Assembly: GCA_020072815.1 (NCBI GenBank)
Contig: JAIQGE010000007.1
Coordinates: forward strand, 1 to 64,000
Direction: 5' to 3'
DNA from: Terriglobia bacterium
GTDB taxonomy: Bacteria > Acidobacteriota > Terriglobia > Terriglobales > Acidobacteriaceae
DNA length: 64,000 nucleotides
How positions within the stretch are numbered: the stretch's first letter is position 1; each line of letters begins with the position of its first letter. The notes under the pieces were generated by a model that was not told the origin of the DNA, made no database searches, and saw only the letters and a list, made by a program, of their open reading frames with translations. The position numbers were made by a program, and so were the translations under genes. Shown piece after piece: positions 8,493-31,281 of this stretch.

Positions 8493-9542
8493 ATGAAGAG
8501 AAGAATAGCTGTCGTCCCCGGCGACGGCATCGGCAAAGAGGTCATTCCCGCGGCCATCAAAGTTGTTGAGGCTTCTGGTGCGGCGGTGGAGTTCACGCAC
8601 TTTGACTGGTCGGCTGACCGGTATCTCAAAGACGGCACCACCATCCCGCCGGACGGCTTTGCCATGCTGGAGCGCGACTTTGACGCCATCTTCGTGGGCG
8701 CGCTGGGCGATCCGCGCGTGCCAACGAACATCCACGCCAAGGAAATCCTGCTGGGCATGCGCTTCAAGATGGACCTGTATGCCAACGTGCGTCCGGTGAA
8801 GGTGCTGGACGAGTCGCTGTGTCCGCTGAAAGGCGTGAAGCCGGAAGAGATTGATTTTGTGGTGGTGCGCGAGAACACCGAAGGCCCGTACGTGGACGCT
8901 GGCGGCGTGCTTAAGCAGGGAACCGCCGACGAGATCGCCACGCAGGAAGATTTCAACACCCGCAAAGGCGTGGAGCGCGTGGTACGCTTCGCGTTTGAAC
9001 TGGCGCGCAAACAGGGCCGCAAGAAAGTGTTGATGTCCGACAAGTCCAACGTTATGACCTACGCCGGCGGGTTGTGGCAGCGGGTGTTCAAACTCGTCGC
9101 CGCCGAGTACGCGGACATTCAGGCGGCGCACATGTACGTGGACGCGCTGTGCATGCACATGGTCCTGAACCCCAAGCAGTTTGACGTAATCGTGACCAAC
9201 AACATGTTCGGCGACATCATCACCGACCTGGCCGCCGCGCTCCAGGGCGGGCTGGGGATGGCCGCCAGCGGAAATATCCATCCGGGAAAGACGTCCATGT
9301 TTGAGCCGGTGCACGGCTCGGCGCCGCCGTTCGCGGGGAAGAACGTGGCCAATCCCATTGGGGCGATCTCCACGGCGGCCATGATGCTGGAACATCTGGG
9401 CTTCGCCAAAGAAGCCGGGCGGATCAATCAGGCGGTGCTCGAAGCCGTGCAGCAGAAGAAGACGACGGCTGACATCGGCGGGAGCCTGGGGACGAAGGAA
9501 GCGGCGGAGTGGATTGCTGCTTCTTTATCCCGAACGCAGTGA
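8493..9542 (+). CDS. leuB: 3-isopropylmalate dehydrogenase-type NAD-dependent decarboxylating dehydrogenase
   Basis: About 349 residues. Family signatures include the N-terminal nucleotide-fold start VVPGDGIGKEVIPAA, the substrate-binding RENTEGPYV segment, the YVDALCMHMV region, VTNNMFGDIITDLAA (metal-binding Asp residues) and the C-terminal EPVHGSAPPFAGKNVANPIG. This is the beta-decarboxylating dehydrogenase family; isopropylmalate dehydrogenase (leucine synthesis) is the most likely member, but tartrate/D-malate or homoisocitrate enzymes share the motifs. The start at ATG 8493 is chosen because GAGCGGAG lies just upstream; TTG at 8478 is the alternative. It is not in an operon with other leu genes here. 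Confidence 0.8.
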   Translation: MKRRIAVVPGDGIGKEVIPAAIKVVEASGAAVEFTHFDWSADRYLKDGTTIPPDGFAMLERDFDAIFVGALGDPRVPTNIHAKEILLGMRFKMDLYANVRPVKVLDESLCPLKGVKPEEIDFVVVRENTEGPYVDAGGVLKQGTADEIATQEDFNTRKGVERVVRFAFELARKQGRKKVLMSDKSNVMTYAGGLWQRVFKLVAAEYADIQAAHMYVDALCMHMVLNPKQFDVIVTNNMFGDIITDLAAALQGGLGMAASGNIHPGKTSMFEPVHGSAPPFAGKNVANPIGAISTAAMMLEHLGFAKEAGRINQAVLEAVQQKKTTADIGGSLGTKEAAEWIAASLSRTQ

Positions 9543-9833: not shown

Positions 9834-9862
9834 TTCACAAGCTAACTACGGTTGGCTATACT
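9834..9862 (+). promoter_or_regulatory. Sigma-70 promoter of the Y RNA/Ro60 locus
   Basis: TTCACA (9834-9839) and TATACT (9857-9862) each differ from the consensus -35 and -10 by one base and are separated by exactly 17 bases. Transcription would start near 9869-9870, upstream of the leader frame and the RNA array. No other promoter of this quality is visible before the Ro60 gene. Confidence 0.7.
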
Positions 9863-9887
9863 GTATCTGCGTAGGAGAACGCCCGTC

Positions 9888-9980
9888 ATGAAACACATAA
9901 CGCAAATCTCGTTGCGGAGGCTGACAGAACTAGTTGCTAGTTCTGATAGCCCATGGGCGTTTGGCAATTACCTTAGCTAA
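9888..9980 (+). CDS. Candidate 30-codon leader peptide
   Basis: ATG with AGGAG nine bases upstream, only about 18 bases after the predicted transcription start, followed by 30 codons and TAA. The coding sequence contains a 9-bp perfect stem (CAGAACTAG/CTAGTTCTG around 9926-9946), extended by GGCT/AGCC. The peptide is hydrophilic and not recognised. It could be a leader peptide, or the frame could be incidental to a structured 5' RNA; TTGCGGA just before the stem even resembles the loop of the downstream RNA units. Confidence 0.4.
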   Translation: MKHITQISLRRLTELVASSDSPWAFGNYLS

Positions 9981-10058
9981 CCTCAAGCGCTTCAGTCCTA
10001 AGCAAACCCTGTAACACACCCGCTGTACCGGCACGTGCGCCGGAAGCGAAACCATTTC

Positions 10059-10131
10059 CGCTGGGTGGCGAAGTCTGTGGTTACTTCGACACGTAATCGA
10101 CCAGATGCCATAGGCGTTTGTTCCCCCAGCG
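10059..10131 (+). ncRNA. Y RNA-like unit 1 (short form)
   Basis: Outer stem CGCTGGG (10059-10065) pairs with CCCAGCG (10125-10131). The 5' internal loop is TGGCGAA (10066-10072), the inner stem is GTCTGTGG/CCATAGGC, and the 3' internal loop is GTTTGTTCC. The apex is only 27 bases with no tRNA-like arms. The inner strand plus loop, GGCGAAGTCTGTGGTTA, resembles the Ro60-binding strand of vertebrate Y RNAs (CCGAAGG...GUGGGUUA) from general knowledge. Confidence 0.65.
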
Positions 10132-10239
10132 ATGGGCTCCCAACCGGTTGTTCAACAAGGGCGTCAGGCCCTGATTTTCATTGGCCATTTCGGCGCGAGC
10201 GGACTCGCGCCCCGAGACAAATTGATATCGCCATGGTTC
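10132..10239. other. Structured spacer in the Y RNA array
   Basis: The largest gap between units. It holds a hairpin AGGGC/GCCCT followed by GATTTTC near 10159-10178, which could be a weak terminator or processing site, and a perfect 8-bp stem GGCGCGAG/CTCGCGCC with a CGGA loop at 10192-10211. Confidence 0.45.
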
Positions 10240-10322
10240 GGTCAGTGGCGGAGATTGCGGATACTTCGCTTTCCAATCGAAGGCGGCGCAAGCTGCCATC
10301 CGCAGTCGTGTGTTCCCTGACC
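10240..10322 (+). ncRNA. Y RNA-like unit 2
   Basis: Outer stem GGTCAG/CTGACC (10240-10245 with 10317-10322), 5' loop TGGCGGA, 10-bp inner stem GATTGCGGAT/ATCCGCAGTC, 3' loop GTGTGTTCC. The apex carries a T-arm-like hairpin (CTTCG, loop with TTCCAAT, CGAAG) and a GGCGGC/GCTGCC stem capped by a GCAA tetraloop (acceptor-like). There is no D-arm. Confidence 0.75.
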
Positions 10323-10331
10323 CTGAAACAT

Positions 10332-10460
10332 CGTCAGTGGCGAAGGCAAGAGTTACTTCTACCTCGAAGGTCGCAGGTGCAAATCCTGCCGGGGCGCAAG
10401 CTCCGTAGCTCAGTAGCAGAGCGGCGAGCCCAAAAACTCTTACCGACTTATTCCCTGGCG
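10332..10460 (+). ncRNA. Y RNA-like unit 3 with full tRNA mimic
   Basis: Outer stem CGTCAG/CTGGCG, 5' loop TGGCGAA, inner stem GGCAAGAGT/ACTCTTACC (one mismatch), 3' loop GACTTATTCC, then a T-run at 10465-10469. The apex carries, in order, a T-arm (GCAGG-TGCAAAT-CCTGC, 10373-10389), an acceptor-like stem CGGGGC/GCTCCG closed by GCAA (10390-10405) and a D-arm (GCTC-AGTAGCA-GAGC, 10408-10422). This is a tRNA circularly permuted and opened at the anticodon arm, as known for YrlA-type bacterial Y RNAs. Confidence 0.8.
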
Positions 10461-10468
10461 ACTATTTT

Positions 10469-10558
10469 TGCCGGTGGTGAAGGCTTGGGTTACTTCACTG
10501 TTAATGAAGGCTAAGCTCGCAAGAGCTTTTCCGACCCGAGGCCGATTGTTCCCCGGCA
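10469..10558 (+). ncRNA. Y RNA-like unit 4
   Basis: Outer stem TGCCGG/CCGGCA, 5' loop TGGTGAA, inner stem GGCTTGGGT pairing with ACCCGAGGCC (one bulge), 3' loop GATTGTTCC. The apex has a T-arm-like hairpin (CTTCA-CTGTTAA-TGAAG) and an AAGCTC/GAGCTT stem with a GCAA tetraloop. It begins within the T-run that follows unit 3. Confidence 0.75.
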
Positions 10559-10570
10559 GGTTCAAGGTTG

Positions 10571-10627
10571 TAAGAAAGAGTTTCACCAGGGCGGAACCCA
10601 GGCTGGTTGCAACACCTGAGTTCCTTA
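10571..10627 (+). ncRNA. Possible decayed Y RNA-like unit
   Basis: Between units 4 and 5 the sequence TTTCACCAGGGCGGAA resembles the opening of unit 5 (TTTCACCGGTGGTGGA), and GAGTTCC resembles the 3' loop. CAGG/CCTG and TAAGAA/TTCCTTA can pair, but the inner and outer stems are weak. It is best read as a degenerated copy or a processing spacer. Confidence 0.35.
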
Positions 10628-10639
10628 GCAGCAGTCAAC

Positions 10640-10843
10640 GTTGGAAACAAGTTTCACCGGTGGTGGAGGCAGGAGATACATCGCCTGTCCGTGGACGCGG
10701 GTAACCGCCAACTCATCGCGCGCGCAAATTCGGCGCATGATGGGAGCGCAAGTCCCGCCGGCATCTCGAGTGCTGTAGTTCAATTGAGAACAACGGACCT
10801 AATTCTCCGGTCAAATGTTCCCCGTGAGGAATTTGGTTCCAAC
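10640..10843 (+). ncRNA. Y RNA-like unit 5 (long form)
   Basis: The core has TCACCGG pairing with CCGTGA (one bulge), 5' loop TGGTGGA, inner stem GGCAGGAGA/TCTCCGGTC (one mismatch) and 3' loop AAATGTTCC. Uniquely, it is extended outwards by GTTGGAA/TTCCAAC (10640-10646 with 10837-10843) and further pairs between. The apex, about 127 bases, includes a GGG-A-GC/GTCCC stem around GCAA and a D-arm-like GTAGTTCAATTGAGAAC (10776-10791) very close to a real tRNA D-arm. Confidence 0.7.
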
Positions 10844-10863
10844 GTAAGCTGCTTTACGAAGTA

Positions 10864-10950
10864 TCGTCGGTGGCGAAGGTCCGGGTTACATCGCCTGATA
10901 AACGACCGGCCTAATAGGCTGGAATACCTGGATCGCTGGTTCCCCGGCGA
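10864..10950 (+). ncRNA. Y RNA-like unit 6
   Basis: Outer stem TCGTCGG/CCGGCGA, 5' loop TGGCGAA, 9-bp inner stem GGTCCGGGT/ACCTGGATC, 3' loop GCTGGTTCC, then ATTTTCC. The apex has a weak T-arm-like hairpin and a CCGGCC/GGCTGG stem with a TAATA loop in place of GCAA. It ends 38 bases before the cysteine-rich protein gene. Confidence 0.75.
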
Positions 10951-10988
10951 ATTTTCCGCGGCCTGCGGGCTGCTTAGAAAGTTCGTTT

Positions 10989-11393
10989 ATGGACTTACGA
11001 AAAGTGTATGGTGGTACGCCGGTGGGGCAGGCATCGCAATGCGACACCTGTGTTTACGCGCGCATCATTCGTGGCTACTCAGAGAGTGAGAAAATCACGC
11101 TTTGCGATCGTCTGCTCGAGGTGATCCGCATTCCCTTTCGTGTCCGGGAGTGCACTGACTACGTTGACAAACGGCTGCCTTGCGTTGAAGACCTGGAAGA
11201 TATCGCGTGGCTGTTGAGAAGCAAGAGCGCCGGTAAGAAAGCAGGCTTCGTCGCGGTCAATGAATTGCGGGATTCTCAAGTTGCGGAAGAACAGTCGCAA
11301 GAGCTTCCGGAAGAGATCCCGGAAGTGATACCCGAAGACGTCCCGGAAGAGGTTCCCGAACAGATGCCGGCTGCTACGGCAGCCAGGAAATAA
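10989..11393 (+). CDS. Cysteine-rich small protein between Y RNA array and Ro60
   Basis: A 134-residue protein. The N-terminal domain (residues 1-70) has five cysteines: CDTC at 18/21, then single cysteines near 38, 54 and 64, suggesting a zinc site or an iron-sulfur cluster. The C-terminal third is a run of acidic-proline repeats (EEIPEVIPEDVPEEVPEQ), probably an extended, disordered tail. It sits between the last RNA unit and the Ro60 gene, 53 bases upstream of the latter, with no terminator between, so it is likely co-transcribed and may work with the ribonucleoprotein. Family not recognised; weak ribosome site. Confidence 0.65.
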   Translation: MDLRKVYGGTPVGQASQCDTCVYARIIRGYSESEKITLCDRLLEVIRIPFRVRECTDYVDKRLPCVEDLEDIAWLLRSKSAGKKAGFVAVNELRDSQVAEEQSQELPEEIPEVIPEDVPEEVPEQMPAATAARK

Positions 11394-11446
11394 GCTATCG
11401 CGGGCGGAGGCGCCTGCGGTCCACAAACAAAGAAGAGGAAAACATC

Positions 11447-12787
11447 ATGGCTCGCATGAACACGCTCAATCTCGGCAACCTGCCCTGGTTCAAGGGACAC
11501 CGCACGCATGAAGGCGCGCCGGCGCGGCACATCTCCGCGGAGCAGCAGCTGCGGCGCTCGGTGCTGGCCTGCATGCTGTGGGAAGACCAGTTCTATGAGG
11601 ACGGAGTGGCCATCGCCGGCCGTATCCGCGAGCTGGTGGCCAAGGTGCCGGCGGAAAAGGTTGCCGCGCTGGCGGTGGAAGCCCGCACGCAGATGAAGTT
11701 GCGTCACGCGCCGCTGTTGCTGGTCCGCGAGATGGCGCGTCTGGCGACGCACCGTGCGCTGGTCGCGGAGACGCTGGCCCGCGTCATCCAGCGTGCCGAC
11801 GAACTCAGCGAGTTCGTGGCGCTCTACTGGAGCGAAGGCAAACAGCCGCTTTCGGCGCAGGTGAAGAAGGGGCTGGCCGCGGCGTTCACGCGCTTTGACG
11901 AGTACGCGCTGGGCAAGTACAACCGCGCCGCGCCGGTAAAGCTGCGTGACGTACTGTTCCTGTGTCACGCCAAGCCGGTGGACGCAGCGCAGGCCGCGCT
12001 GTGGAAGCGCCTGGTGGAAGGCGAACTGGCAACGCCGTACACCTGGGAAGTTGCGCTTTCCGGCGGAGCCGACAAGCGCGAAGCCTGGGAGCGCCTGCTC
12101 AGCGAGAACAAGCTGGGCGCGCTGGCCCTGTTGCGCAACCTGCGCAACATGGCGGAAGCCAAGGTCAGCGAGCAGGCCATCCGCGACGGCCTGGCGCGCA
12201 TGAAGACCGAGCGTGTTTTGCCTTTCCGCTTTATCGCTGCAGCGCGTTACGCTCCGCAGTGGGAGGCGGAGATCGAACAGGCGATGTTCCGGGCGTTGGT
12301 TGCGCAGAACAAGGAAGGCCAAGCCAAGCTGCCGGGAAAGACCGTGCTGCTGGTGGACGTCTCCGGCTCCATGGACGCGCCGCTCTCGCGCCGTTCAGAG
12401 ATGCGGCGCAATGACGCGGCCTACGGGCTGGCGGTGTTGCTGCGCGAGATCGCCGAGCAGGTGAGCATCTACACTTTCTCCGATGATCTGGTGCGCGTGC
12501 CGGCACGGCAGGGGTTCGCTCTGCGTGACGCGCTGAACGCCAGCCAGCGTCACAACGGAACGTACCTGGGCAAGGCGCTGCAGGGTCTGGACGAGAAGTA
12601 CGACCGCTTGATCGTGATCACCGACGAGCAATCGCACGATTCCGTCCCCAACCCCAAGGCGCGGGGCTGGATGCTGAACGTGGCCAGTTACCAGAACGGT
12701 GTCGGCTACGGCGCCTGGATGCACGTGGATGGCTGGAGCGATTCGGTCATTGAGTACATCCGCGCGGCCGAGCCGGTGCTGGAGTAA
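11447..12787 (+). CDS. rsr: Ro60/Rsr orthologue (TROVE domain plus vWA domain)
   Basis: A 446-residue protein with a GAAGAGGA ribosome site. Residues about 10-280 form the helical TROVE repeat ring (RRSVLACMLWEDQFYEDG at the start, LGALALLRNLRNMAEAKVS near the end) that holds Y RNAs on its rim and misfolded RNA ends in its central hole. Residues about 297-440 form a von Willebrand A domain with an intact MIDAS: DVSGSM (Asp304, Ser306, Ser308), a Thr in NGTYLGKAL and Asp in ITDEQSHD. It is shorter than the roughly 530-residue Deinococcus and vertebrate proteins. It lies directly downstream of the Y RNA-like array, which strongly supports the identification, and is followed by a strong terminator. 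Confidence 0.9.
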   Translation: MARMNTLNLGNLPWFKGHRTHEGAPARHISAEQQLRRSVLACMLWEDQFYEDGVAIAGRIRELVAKVPAEKVAALAVEARTQMKLRHAPLLLVREMARLATHRALVAETLARVIQRADELSEFVALYWSEGKQPLSAQVKKGLAAAFTRFDEYALGKYNRAAPVKLRDVLFLCHAKPVDAAQAALWKRLVEGELATPYTWEVALSGGADKREAWERLLSENKLGALALLRNLRNMAEAKVSEQAIRDGLARMKTERVLPFRFIAAARYAPQWEAEIEQAMFRALVAQNKEGQAKLPGKTVLLVDVSGSMDAPLSRRSEMRRNDAAYGLAVLLREIAEQVSIYTFSDDLVRVPARQGFALRDALNASQRHNGTYLGKALQGLDEKYDRLIVITDEQSHDSVPNPKARGWMLNVASYQNGVGYGAWMHVDGWSDSVIEYIRAAEPVLE

Positions 12788-12793
12788 AACGTT

Positions 12794-12844
12794 GCCGCTG
12801 ATCGTTTGTTCGAAAGTTCGTTCGACGATCAGCGGCATTTTTTT
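12794..12844 (+). terminator. Rho-independent terminator after Ro60
   Basis: GCCGCTGATCGT (12794-12805) pairs perfectly with ACGATCAGCGGC (12825-12836), followed by a run of seven T (12838-12844). It closes the promoter-array-Ro60 transcription unit. Confidence 0.9.
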
Positions 12845-12850
12845 AGCTCT

Positions 12851-12939
12851 TGTGCCGCACCTACGGCGCTCGCATCGTTCTTCCTGCCTTCCCAGGCCTG
12901 CCGGCCTGGGCTAACTCATTTCGCGCCTACGGCGCTGGG
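12851..12939 (+). repeat. REP-like palindromic repeat
   Basis: Contains GTGCCGCACCTACGGCGCTC, the palindrome CCCAGGCCTGCCGGCCTGGG and the conserved tail CTAACTCATTTCGCGCCTACGGCGCTGG. The same units occur at 14846, 29706, 29920 (inverted), 30451 and 31057, around the RAYT gene. The rest of the interval up to 13231 holds no supported gene. Confidence 0.8.
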
Positions 12940-14845: not shown

Positions 14846-15175
14846 GTGTCGCCCCTACGGGGCTTGAATCGTTTTTCCCGCCTTCCTCAGGCCTGCCGGC
14901 CTGGGCTAACTCATTTCGCGCCTACGGCGCTGGGCACAGGATGGCCTGTGCGGATTTGTCGTGTCGTAGACGAACGGTATTGGAGCTAGATCATTTCGCG
15001 CCTACGGCGCTGGGCACACGATGGCTCTGCGCGGACTTGTCCTTTCGTAGACGAACGGTATTGGAGCTAAATCATTTCGCGCCTACGGCGCTGGGCACAT
15101 GGCCTGTGCGGATTTGTCGTGTCGTAGGCGAACAGCATTGGAGCTAGATCATTTGGCGCCTGCGGCGCTTCGTTC
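14846..15175 (+). repeat. REP element with four-copy about 80-bp tandem repeat
   Basis: A REP-type palindrome (CAGGCCTGCCGGCCTG) leads into four copies of TCATTTCGCGCCTACGGCGC beginning at 14911, 14991, 15072 and 15149 (periods 80, 81 and 77). Each of the first three is followed by a spacer of the type GG-x-TTGTC-x-TGTCGTAGACGAACGGTATTGGAGC. It fills the interval between the metalloprotease gene and mtnP. Confidence 0.85.
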
Positions 15176-29919: not shown

Positions 29920-30537
29920 CAGCGCCGGAGGCGCGGGATGAGTTAGCCCAGGCCGGAAGGCCTGGGTAGGGATAGGTTAAAATGGCGAGCCCCGGAGGGG
30001 CGATACATGTCACACACCTATTCGCAAAACCATCTTCACGTTGTTTTCAGCACGAAAGAGCGCCGGAAGATCATCGCCGAACAAATGCAGCCCAAATTGT
30101 GGTCCTACATGGGCGGAATTGGACGAAATCATGGATTCCTGGTCCTGGCCAACGGCGGCATCGAGGACCACGTCCACCTGCTGATCCAGGTACCTCCGGC
30201 TTTGGCGTTGGCCAAAGCAGTGTCGTTGCTGAAATCAAACTCTTCGAAGTGGATGAATGAGCACGGAATCAAGTTTGCGTGGCAGGAAGGGTATGGAGCG
30301 TTCAGTGTGAGCGAGTCGAACCTCGCCGCGGTCGAGCGGTATATTCGCAACCAGCCCAAGCACCACCGCAAGATGACGTTTGAGCAAGAGTTTATTGCCC
30401 TGCTCAAGAAACACCGGATCGAGTTTGATCCCAAGTACGTATTTGGATAGTGCCGCACCTACGGCGCTCGTGAGTCTTTTACCATCCTACCCAGGCCTTC
30501 CGGCCTGGGCTAACTCATTTCGCGCCTACGGCGCTGG
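29920..30537 (+). mobile_element. RAYT transposase unit flanked by inverted REP elements
   Basis: The IS200-type transposase gene lies between two REP elements in opposite orientation: left 29920-30006 (CAGCGCCGGAGGCGC ... CCCAGGCCGGAAGGCCTGGG) and right 30451-30537 (CCCAGGCCTTCCGGCCTGGG ... CGCGCCTACGGCGCTGG). This is the layout of REP-associated tyrosine transposase loci, in which solitary REP copies elsewhere are thought to be moved in trans. Related copies in the window are at 12851, 14846, 29706 and 31057. Confidence 0.75.
30007..30450 (+). CDS. rayT: REP-associated tyrosine transposase (Y1/HUH, IS200-like)
   Basis: A 147-residue protein with the HUH pair EDHVHLL (His55, His57) and the catalytic tyrosine in RYIRNQPKHH (Tyr112), complete for a Y1 single-strand nuclease. 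The opening HTYSQNHLHVVFSTKERR is typical of IS200/RAYT proteins. No frameshift or truncation. It should nick REP hairpins as single strands. The ATG follows a REP copy directly, so expression depends on sequence within the repeat. Confidence 0.88.
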   Translation: MSHTYSQNHLHVVFSTKERRKIIAEQMQPKLWSYMGGIGRNHGFLVLANGGIEDHVHLLIQVPPALALAKAVSLLKSNSSKWMNEHGIKFAWQEGYGAFSVSESNLAAVERYIRNQPKHHRKMTFEQEFIALLKKHRIEFDPKYVFG

Positions 30538-31056: not shown

Positions 31057-31281
31057 GCCGCCCCCTACGGGCTCTGCTTGGTTTCCCTCCCCATTGCCCA
31101 GGCCTTCCGGCCTGGGCTAACTCATTTCGCGCCTTCGGCGCTGGAACATCCGAGACGGTCAAAACCCCTTTCCATCGCCACCGGCCAACTCATTTCGCGC
31201 TTTCGGCGCTGGGTCATGCCAGGCGGTCAAGCCCCAATTTATCGGTGCCAGCCTGGGTAAGTCATTCCACGCCCGGCGCTG
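31057..31281 (+). repeat. Cluster of REP-like repeats
   Basis: A full palindrome CCCAGGCCTTCCGGCCTGGG with tail, then two or three partial copies of AACTCATTTCGCGC(C/T)TTCGGCGCTGG separated by about 65 bases. They probably arose by local duplication near the RAYT. Confidence 0.75.

What the first reader, a model, noticed from the sequence alone, without database searches (positions are those of the whole stretch)
9834..12844. Tandem Y RNA-like array driving a Ro60 operon
Six RNA units (10059, 10240, 10332, 10469, 10640, 10864), plus one decayed, lie head to tail between a near-consensus promoter and a Ro60/TROVE gene closed by a terminator. Each has an outer stem, a 5' loop TGG(C/T)G(A/G)A, an inner stem, a 3' loop of 9-10 bases ending TTCC and the outer partner strand. 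Loop sequences are conserved 6 of 6, whereas stems differ in every unit yet stay paired (CGCTGGG/CCCAGCG, GGTCAG/CTGACC, CGTCAG/CTGGCG, TGCCGG/CCGGCA, TCGTCGG/CCGGCGA), which is direct covariation. Known bacterial Ro60 loci, as I recall them, carry one or a few Y RNAs; an array of six would be a new scale, perhaps allowing several client specificities.
Basis: partly seen in the sequence, partly recalled or inferred. Interest (0 to 1): 0.95.

Follow-up and report, generated by a model that had tools for sequence, protein, structure and literature searches.

The report
Six-unit Y RNA array before Ro60
A soil bacterium encodes a row of six small folded RNAs, at least one resembling a rearranged tRNA, directly in front of the gene for the RNA-quality-control protein Ro60; similar rows of up to eight occur in distant bacteria and in phages, which suggests that one protein is served by a set of interchangeable RNA adaptors.

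Summary
Six RNA units (10057-10952) lie head to tail upstream of a true Ro60/TROVE gene (11447-12787) that ends in a strong terminator. In a sequence-only alignment of 20 units from this and related loci, 13 of 15 stem pairs show two-sided compensatory change (covariation score reached by 0 of 500 shuffles). Unit 3 matches the Rfam Y RNA family YrlA (E 4e-6, below its cut-off) in permuted-tRNA order.

The array is not peculiar to this genome. In 54 loci (window included) all 224 model hits lie upstream of Ro60 on its strand; 45 loci have 3 or more units, up to 8. Arrays also occur in Caulobacter, Brevundimonas and Xanthomonas phages. Carriage tracks Ro60 (of 399 genomes 55 have Ro60, 43 the RNA, 41 both).

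Also found: a second conserved tip domain in other arrays, a non-random order (short unit first), a conserved 4-Cys protein, and single copies inside tRNA arrays, two of them beside rtcB. Bacterial Y RNAs are known; an ordered multi-class array looks like a new variant. Expression, Ro60 binding and the 'several clients' idea are untested.

The parts
9834..9862 (+). sigma-70-like promoter (TTCACA, 17 nt, TATACT), putative
   Evidence: 10 of 12; 2 sites found vs 0.8 expected; a TAT-CTG sequence and the region after it recur in same-genus loci
9871..10003 (+). conserved leader, probably a structured RNA, not a Y RNA unit; class unknown
   Evidence: terminal stem GCGTAGG/CCTACGC in most copies and a hairpin; only 6 of 28 predicted pairs show two-sided change and the covariation term is +0.19, so the structure is weakly supported; no Rfam match there up to E 10
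10057..10133 (+). Y RNA-like unit 1, minimal, 77 nt
   Evidence: R1 75.0 bits; R2 36.7; fold z -3.6
10237..10325 (+). Y RNA-like unit 2
   Evidence: R1 65.4 bits; not listed by R2; fold z -3.3
10329..10463 (+). Y RNA-like unit 3 with permuted tRNA-like domain (T arm, acceptor-like hairpin, D arm)
   Evidence: Rfam YrlA over 10337-10449, E 4.3e-6, 37.1 bits, cut-off 69; R1 37.5; R2 43.3; fold z -1.9
10466..10561 (+). Y RNA-like unit 4
   Evidence: R1 66.4; R2 50.3; fold z -2.9
10652..10829 (+). Y RNA-like unit 5, long insert with loose tRNA-like T and D arms (by eye); weakest unit
   Evidence: R1 25.1, E 0.0013; R2 28.4; fold z -0.67, different fold
10862..10952 (+). Y RNA-like unit 6
   Evidence: R1 74.0; R2 46.6; fold z -2.0
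10989..11393 (+). 134-aa protein with 4 conserved Cys (C18, C21, C39, C55), unknown family
   Evidence: tblastn hits in 39 fetched loci, several of them duplicates of one genome; alignment of 24; no Pfam or NCBIfam family
11447..12787 (+). Ro60/TROVE protein, 446 aa, vWA MIDAS residues intact
12793..12844 (+). intrinsic terminator
   Evidence: hairpin z -5.2 followed by seven T

Best explanation
The locus is a Ro60 ribonucleoprotein operon. One transcript would carry six Y RNAs followed by a 4-Cys protein and Ro60. Every unit has the same Ro60-docking base (outer stem, conserved internal loop, inner stem) and a different insert at its tip; one insert clearly, and a second loosely, imitates a permuted tRNA. 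Shown here: the common base by covariation, the Ro60 fold, the linkage to Ro60, and the wide conservation of the array. Inferred: the units are cut out as separate RNAs, each docks on the Ro60 ring by its base, and the different tips let one Ro60 be coupled to different partners (a nuclease such as PNPase, tRNA-handling enzymes, or none, for a unit that only gates the ring), much as known bacterial Y RNAs do singly.
For: Covariation: 93.7% of 300 cells paired, 13 of 15 pairs with two-sided change (2/500 shuffles reach 13), covariation score 0.869 vs 0.261 shuffled, 0/500; 104 acidobacterial units, 14 of 15 pairs (that alignment is fitted to the model). Specificity: all 224 hits in 54 sources are upstream of Ro60 on its strand. 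Co-occurrence: the identical 10 of 61 relatives; of 399 genomes 55 have TROVE, 43 RNA, 41 both, Fisher p 2e-41. Unit 3 matches YrlA, whose consensus shares the GGCGAA motif (alignment). Permuted tRNA domains (T arm then D arm) in 56 of 224 units and 0 of 4480 shuffles. Units not used in training are found beside Ro60 in phages and plasmids. Ro60: predicted fold matches solved Ro60 and Rsr; H174 and MIDAS residues invariant in 19.
Against: No expression or binding data. Unit 3 scores below the Rfam YrlA cut-off (37.1 vs 69); no other unit matches an Rfam family credibly, and none of 16 related loci has a YrlA match at the cut-off. Unit 5 is weak by model and fold. No terminator was seen between array and genes, so processing is assumed. 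The strict T-loop test fails in 15 of 54 sources, the window among them. R1 was trained on 20 units from the loci it was then counted in (16 from relatives, 4 from the window). Ro60's vWA model is just under its Pfam cut-off (26.3 vs 27.7) and NCBIfam names nothing.
Confidence: 0.72

Rival explanations
1. The array is mainly a cis-acting leader: Ro60 binds the repeated sites in its own mRNA and so controls its translation or decay; free Y RNAs are not the point.
For: The units lie in the 5' part of the presumed operon, and the terminator-like + strand sites found by scan before the genes (9500-9521 and 10158-10172) are no more than chance (4 found, 3.9 expected); 224 of 224 hits are upstream of Ro60 on its strand.
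Against: Closed-end folds and tRNA-like tips go beyond a binding site; copies exist in trans within tRNA arrays of same-genus genomes.
Confidence: 0.13
2. The tRNA-like units are decoys or sponges for anticodon nucleases or tRNA-modifying enzymes in a tRNA-damage response; Ro60 only stabilises them.
For: Permuted tRNA domains in 56 of 224 units; an RtcB-like gene near Ro60 in 38 of 78 named loci; copies inside tRNA arrays, two of four with rtcB close by. Hughes et al. 2020 mention competitive inhibition by YrlA as a possibility (passages of PMC7790460).
Against: 168 of 224 units do not meet the tRNA-like test (a strict test); in the window's genome rtcB is on another contig, with no Y RNA hit or tRNA within about 5 kb.
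Confidence: 0.1
3. The units are degenerate tRNA genes or a dispersed repeat family without function.
For: tRNA-like arms in some units; unit 5 is weakly folded.
Against: Compensatory change in both stems, tight linkage to Ro60; in 20 genomes searched whole, all listed hits have positions inside the Ro60 stretch fetched earlier.
Confidence: 0.03

Closest known systems
Bacterial Y RNAs with Rsr (Deinococcus radiodurans Y RNA; RYPER complex with PNPase)
   Same: RNA encoded beside Ro60/Rsr, ends paired in a basal stem, variable effector tip (RYPER as summarised in passages of PMC8394870 and PMC8058203).
   Different: Here six units in one array with several tip classes, typical of a whole Ro60 clade; a PNPase link is untested.
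YrlA / YrlB of Salmonella, rsr-yrlBA-rtcBA operon (Rfam RF02553)
   Same: Unit 3 has the YrlA order: base stem, T arm, acceptor-like hairpin, D arm. An RtcB-like gene is near Ro60 in 38 of 78 named loci.
   Different: Score below Rfam's cut-off; array upstream of Ro60; no rtcB at the window locus; most units are not tRNA-like.
Vertebrate Y RNAs (Y1, Y3, Y4, Y5) with Ro60
   Same: Basal stem as Ro60 site, with a single bulged base (vertebrate bulge recalled; here an unpaired U before GG/CC pairs in the predicted folds of units 3 and 4).
   Different: No sequence kinship tested; separate genes rather than an array (recalled).
tRNA array units (e.g. Anabaena trn operon, mycobacterial tRNA arrays)
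   Same: Same-genus relatives hold a Y RNA-like unit inside tRNA arrays of 8-25 genes.
   Different: Not present near rtcB in the window's genome; the words Y RNA and Ro60 do not occur in the Anabaena paper (find in PMC10272220).
Listeria phage CKA15 abundant RNAs near an Rsr-like gene
   Same: Three highly transcribed regions within 2 kb upstream of an Rsr-like gene, proposed there as possible Y RNAs (passages of PMC12282133).
   Different: No structure or array analysis in the passages seen; sequence not compared here.

Membership tests
Ro60/TROVE protein | TROVE domain over the curated cut-off | tested here: met
   PF05731 56.5 bits, cut-off 23
Ro60/TROVE protein | HEAT-repeat ring plus vWA domain with MIDAS | tested here: met
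   model pLDDT 84; PDB 9kop, 9l5y, 1yvp, 2nvo all with E below 1e-11; D304, S306, S308, T372, D393 invariant in 19. The Pfam vWA_Ro60 model scores 26.3, just under its cut-off 27.7
Ro60/TROVE protein | binds Y RNA | not testable with these tools
   H174 is invariant in 19 and aligned to the His of 9l5y; that this His is needed for Y RNA binding is recalled
bacterial Y RNA | encoded next to Ro60 | tested here: met
bacterial Y RNA | paired ends forming a conserved base stem with internal loop | tested here: met
   GGCGAA shared with the YrlA consensus
bacterial Y RNA | at least one tRNA-like member per locus (recalled from Chen et al. 2014) | tested here: met
   unit 3 by Rfam YrlA E 4e-6; the stricter motif rule is met in 39 of 54 sources but not by the window
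bacterial Y RNA | RNA expressed and bound by Ro60 | not testable with these tools
   no expression or binding data
Rfam YrlA (RF02553) | score at or above the gathering cut-off | tested here: not met
   unit 3 37.1 bits vs 69; no YrlA match for the other five units up to E 10
rsr-yrl-rtcB RNA repair operon | rtcB in the same operon | tested here: not met
   own genome has a single RtcB match, on contig C23; the window is C7

The most novel reading that the evidence does not exclude
Ro60 in this clade is a programmable hub: an ordered cassette array supplies one ring protein with several classes of adaptor RNA (minimal gate first, tRNA mimics, a second conserved non-tRNA domain), the array is shared by bacteria of different phyla and by jumbo phages, and extra cassettes are planted inside tRNA arrays and in front of rtcB, tying Ro60 to tRNA repair or replacement.
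Probability: 0.4. Interest if true: 0.85.

Novelty: new variant of a known kind. Interest (0 to 1): 0.62.

Why it matters
As far as I recall, bacterial Y RNAs have been studied one or two at a time. Arrays with several tip classes on one common base offer a natural series of swaps: the same Ro60 dock with different effector tips, in culturable bacteria and in phages. That makes the open question of what Y RNA effector domains choose (nuclease, tRNA enzymes, gate) directly testable. It also shows that two phage records label such units as tRNAs, and that Rfam at its cut-off finds no YrlA in 16 array-bearing loci.

Tried and rejected
Coding potential of the leader: a reading frame of about 30 codons (window 9888-9980) is kept in length in seven copies, but in 9 of 10 comparable pairs non-synonymous codon changes outnumber synonymous ones (window vs L002 is the exception, 6 syn / 5 non-syn), so I see no sign of selection on a peptide; the RNA structure is itself only weakly supported. 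Structure of the 4-Cys protein: AlphaFold pLDDT 48, not usable, no fold search made. Unit 5 as a member of the second domain class: 28 bits in R2 against 79-182 for the 12 members, rejected. Own-genome copy of the tRNA-array/rtcB locus: none within about 5 kb of its rtcB, and no off-locus R1 hit. RNA-positive genomes without Ro60 (2 of 43): G295 is a contig end (two units, then the contig stops); G397 is one hit of 35.5 bits without Ro60 in 9.6 kb, unexplained. Ro60-positive genomes without RNA hit (14 of 55): 9 lie in one other family (f6); that search used stricter filters, so some may be misses; likewise G434 gave none although its Ro60 locus L031 has units. First MAFFT alignment A1 (28 rows) misplaced the inner stem in 8 rows with large inserts; those 8 were dropped before A2 (20 rows), from which R1 was built. 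Literature: Chen 2013, Chen 2014 and Sim and Wolin 2018 are not held, so what I say of them is recalled or second hand.
Full report
Identity of the locus. The window lies in an acidobacterial genome (Ro60 relatives with 83-89% identity are acidobacterial MAGs; G000, contig C7). The gene at 11447-12787 encodes a TROVE protein: Pfam PF05731 at 56.5 bits, with the vWA_Ro60 model just under its cut-off; phmmer E 1e-29 to two solved TROVE proteins over residues 17-442; and an AlphaFold model (pLDDT 84) whose best PDB matches are a TROVE domain (9kop), Ro60 of Thermus phage phiLo, vertebrate Ro60 and Deinococcus Rsr. H174 and the MIDAS residues are invariant in 19 aligned relatives. A strong terminator follows at 12793-12844.

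The six units. A descriptor scan finds exactly six + strand units in 64 kb, all in the array. From 20 units aligned by sequence alone (A2) I built covariance model R1; the structure was set by eye from the window units. On A2, 93.7% of cells are paired, 13 of 15 pairs show two-sided change (2/500 shuffles reach that), and the covariation score is 0.869 against 0.261 (sd 0.030) in shuffles, 0/500; sliding the partner by 1-3 columns drops pairing to 33-50%. R1 finds all six window units. R2, built from 11 units of other genomes, finds five of six. Energy folds recover both stems in units 1, 2, 3, 4 and 6 with z-scores -3.6, -3.3, -1.9, -2.9, -2.0; in units 3 and 4 they add GG/CC pairs beyond an unpaired U. 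Unit 5 gives -0.67 and a different fold.

tRNA mimicry. Unit 3 matches Rfam YrlA over its full length (37.1 bits, E 4.3e-6; curated cut-off 69), and the sequence shows a T arm, a hairpin in place of the acceptor end, and a D arm, i.e. tRNA in permuted order. Unit 5 shows looser T and D arms by eye. Across 224 units of 54 sources, a strict test (TTCRA T loop, then a D arm) is met by 56 units and by 0 of 4480 shuffles; 39 of 54 sources have at least one such unit, the window and 14 others do not by that rule.

Conservation. 78 Ro60 relatives were fetched from named genomes. R1 over window plus these 78 loci gave 321 hits at E up to 1; all 300 listed are on the + strand. For 53 of these 78 loci plus the window I stored the hits: 224 hits at E up to 0.1, at least one in each of the 54 sources, all on the Ro60 strand and all ending before Ro60; 45 of 54 sources have 3 or more units, sizes 1 to 8; median gap between units 16 nt. 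R1's training units come from some of these loci, and many Bradyrhizobium loci are close relatives, so the counts are not independent. In 61 relatives the same 10 genomes have Ro60 and RNA hits. In 399 genomes of the class, 55 have TROVE and 43 RNA hits, 41 both (compared by hand; Fisher p 2e-41). Of 29 TROVE loci from that search read with short flanks, 20 hold R1 hits, all 49 on the strand of the TROVE match.

Phages and plasmids. tblastn of Ro60 finds matches in 85 phage and 22 plasmid records. Of seven regions read, R1 at E below 0.001 finds 8 units in Caulobacter phage CcrColossus, 4 each in Brevundimonas phages Gurke and Bambus, 4 in Xanthomonas phage 10KY502B, 2 on a Deinococcus gobiensis plasmid, 1 (27 bits) on an Allomeiothermus plasmid, and none on a Rhodococcus plasmid; R2 adds one each in Gurke and 10KY502B. 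Annotated 'tRNA' genes in CcrColossus and 10KY502B fall inside such units.

Order and classes. In 45 arrays of 3 or more, the first unit is the shortest in 25 (10.3 expected; none of 20,000 simulations reached it); four sources whose first hit lies within 200 nt of the end of the stretch held were not removed. A second tip class (model R2: 169 positions, 43 pairs; 26 pairs with two-sided change in 11 sequences) is found in 12 acidobacterial loci at 79-182 bits, everything else at 73 or less in 48 sources; 11 of the 12 were its training set, and the window lacks it.

Neighbours. The 134-aa protein has tblastn hits in 39 fetched loci, duplicates of one genome included, none of them among the alphaproteobacterial loci; where I compared positions it lies between the last unit and Ro60 or within the array. 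Three Cys are invariant and a fourth nearly so in 24, and there is no family match (one member reaches E 0.12 to DUF4762). An RtcB-like gene lies near Ro60 in 38 of 78 named loci, as in the Salmonella operon, but not here. In four same-genus genomes single units lie elsewhere: inside tRNA arrays of 8 to 25 genes (L092-L095; an RtcB-family gene beside two of them) or directly before one (L096) (RtcB naming by NCBIfam matches below the curated cut-offs). In 20 genomes reached through named loci and searched whole, 19 had hits, and all listed positions fall inside the Ro60 stretches fetched earlier.

Mechanism. Shown: a shared base under structural constraint, different tips, linkage to Ro60. Inferred: processing into separate Y RNAs, docking on Ro60, tips that recruit different partners. 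PNPase tethering by a Y RNA is known for Deinococcus (passages in PMC7790460, PMC8058203, PMC8394870).

Novelty. Eight searches of the held library gave reviews, the Salmonella operon papers and a Listeria phage paper that suspects Y RNAs in three abundant RNAs near an Rsr-like gene; none described arrays in what I saw (listings, and passages of six papers). The key paper (Chen et al. 2014) is not held; I recall its abstract as reporting Y RNAs near Ro60 in over 250 species with at least one tRNA-like RNA each, so multiplicity as such may not be new. I rate this a new variant of a known kind.

Noticed in passing
window 9871-10003; L002 164-296; L003 2131-2262; L004 2056-2188; L026 838-972; L085 190-329: Conserved leader at the head of the operon, with a stem that pairs GTAGGA (Shine-Dalgarno-like) with TCCTAC and an internal hairpin; two-sided change in 6 of 28 pairs only; no Rfam match; class unknown.
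   Followed up: partly
L092 4001-4074, L093 1322-1394, L094 4019-4091, L095 3983-4056 (-): Y RNA-like units inside tRNA arrays (8, 22, 25, 19 tRNAs) of same-genus genomes, in three of four between tRNA-Gln(TTG) and tRNA-Gln(CTG); an RtcB-family gene follows in L093 and L094.
   Followed up: partly
L096 4018-4154: Y RNA-like unit whose tip is a tRNA in normal, unpermuted order (called tRNA-Ile by ARAGORN), 23 nt before the start codon of an RtcB-family gene.
   Followed up: partly
L138 2717-3916, L136, L137, L142: Phages carry Ro60 with up to 8 Y RNA-like units; units in L138 and L137 are annotated as tRNA-Gln and tRNA-Thr.
   Followed up: partly
window 10989-11393: 4-Cys protein of unknown family between array and Ro60, with homologues in other acidobacterial Ro60 loci.
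   Followed up: partly
L002 930-1104, L010 1260-1426, L011 1209-1377, L014 2742-2910 and others: Second conserved tip domain, distinct from the tRNA-like one, in 12 acidobacterial arrays.
   Followed up: partly
window 12891-12936, 14886-14931, 29921-29966 (-), 30490-30535, 31097-31142: Five Acido-Lenti-1 RNA matches above the cut-off, one just after the Ro60 terminator.
   Followed up: no
G001:C115 and G008:C170: Ro60 looks shortened or broken in two same-genus genomes (matches in two pieces: residues 312-382 missing in one, an internal stop in the other) although R1 hits remain beside it.
   Followed up: no
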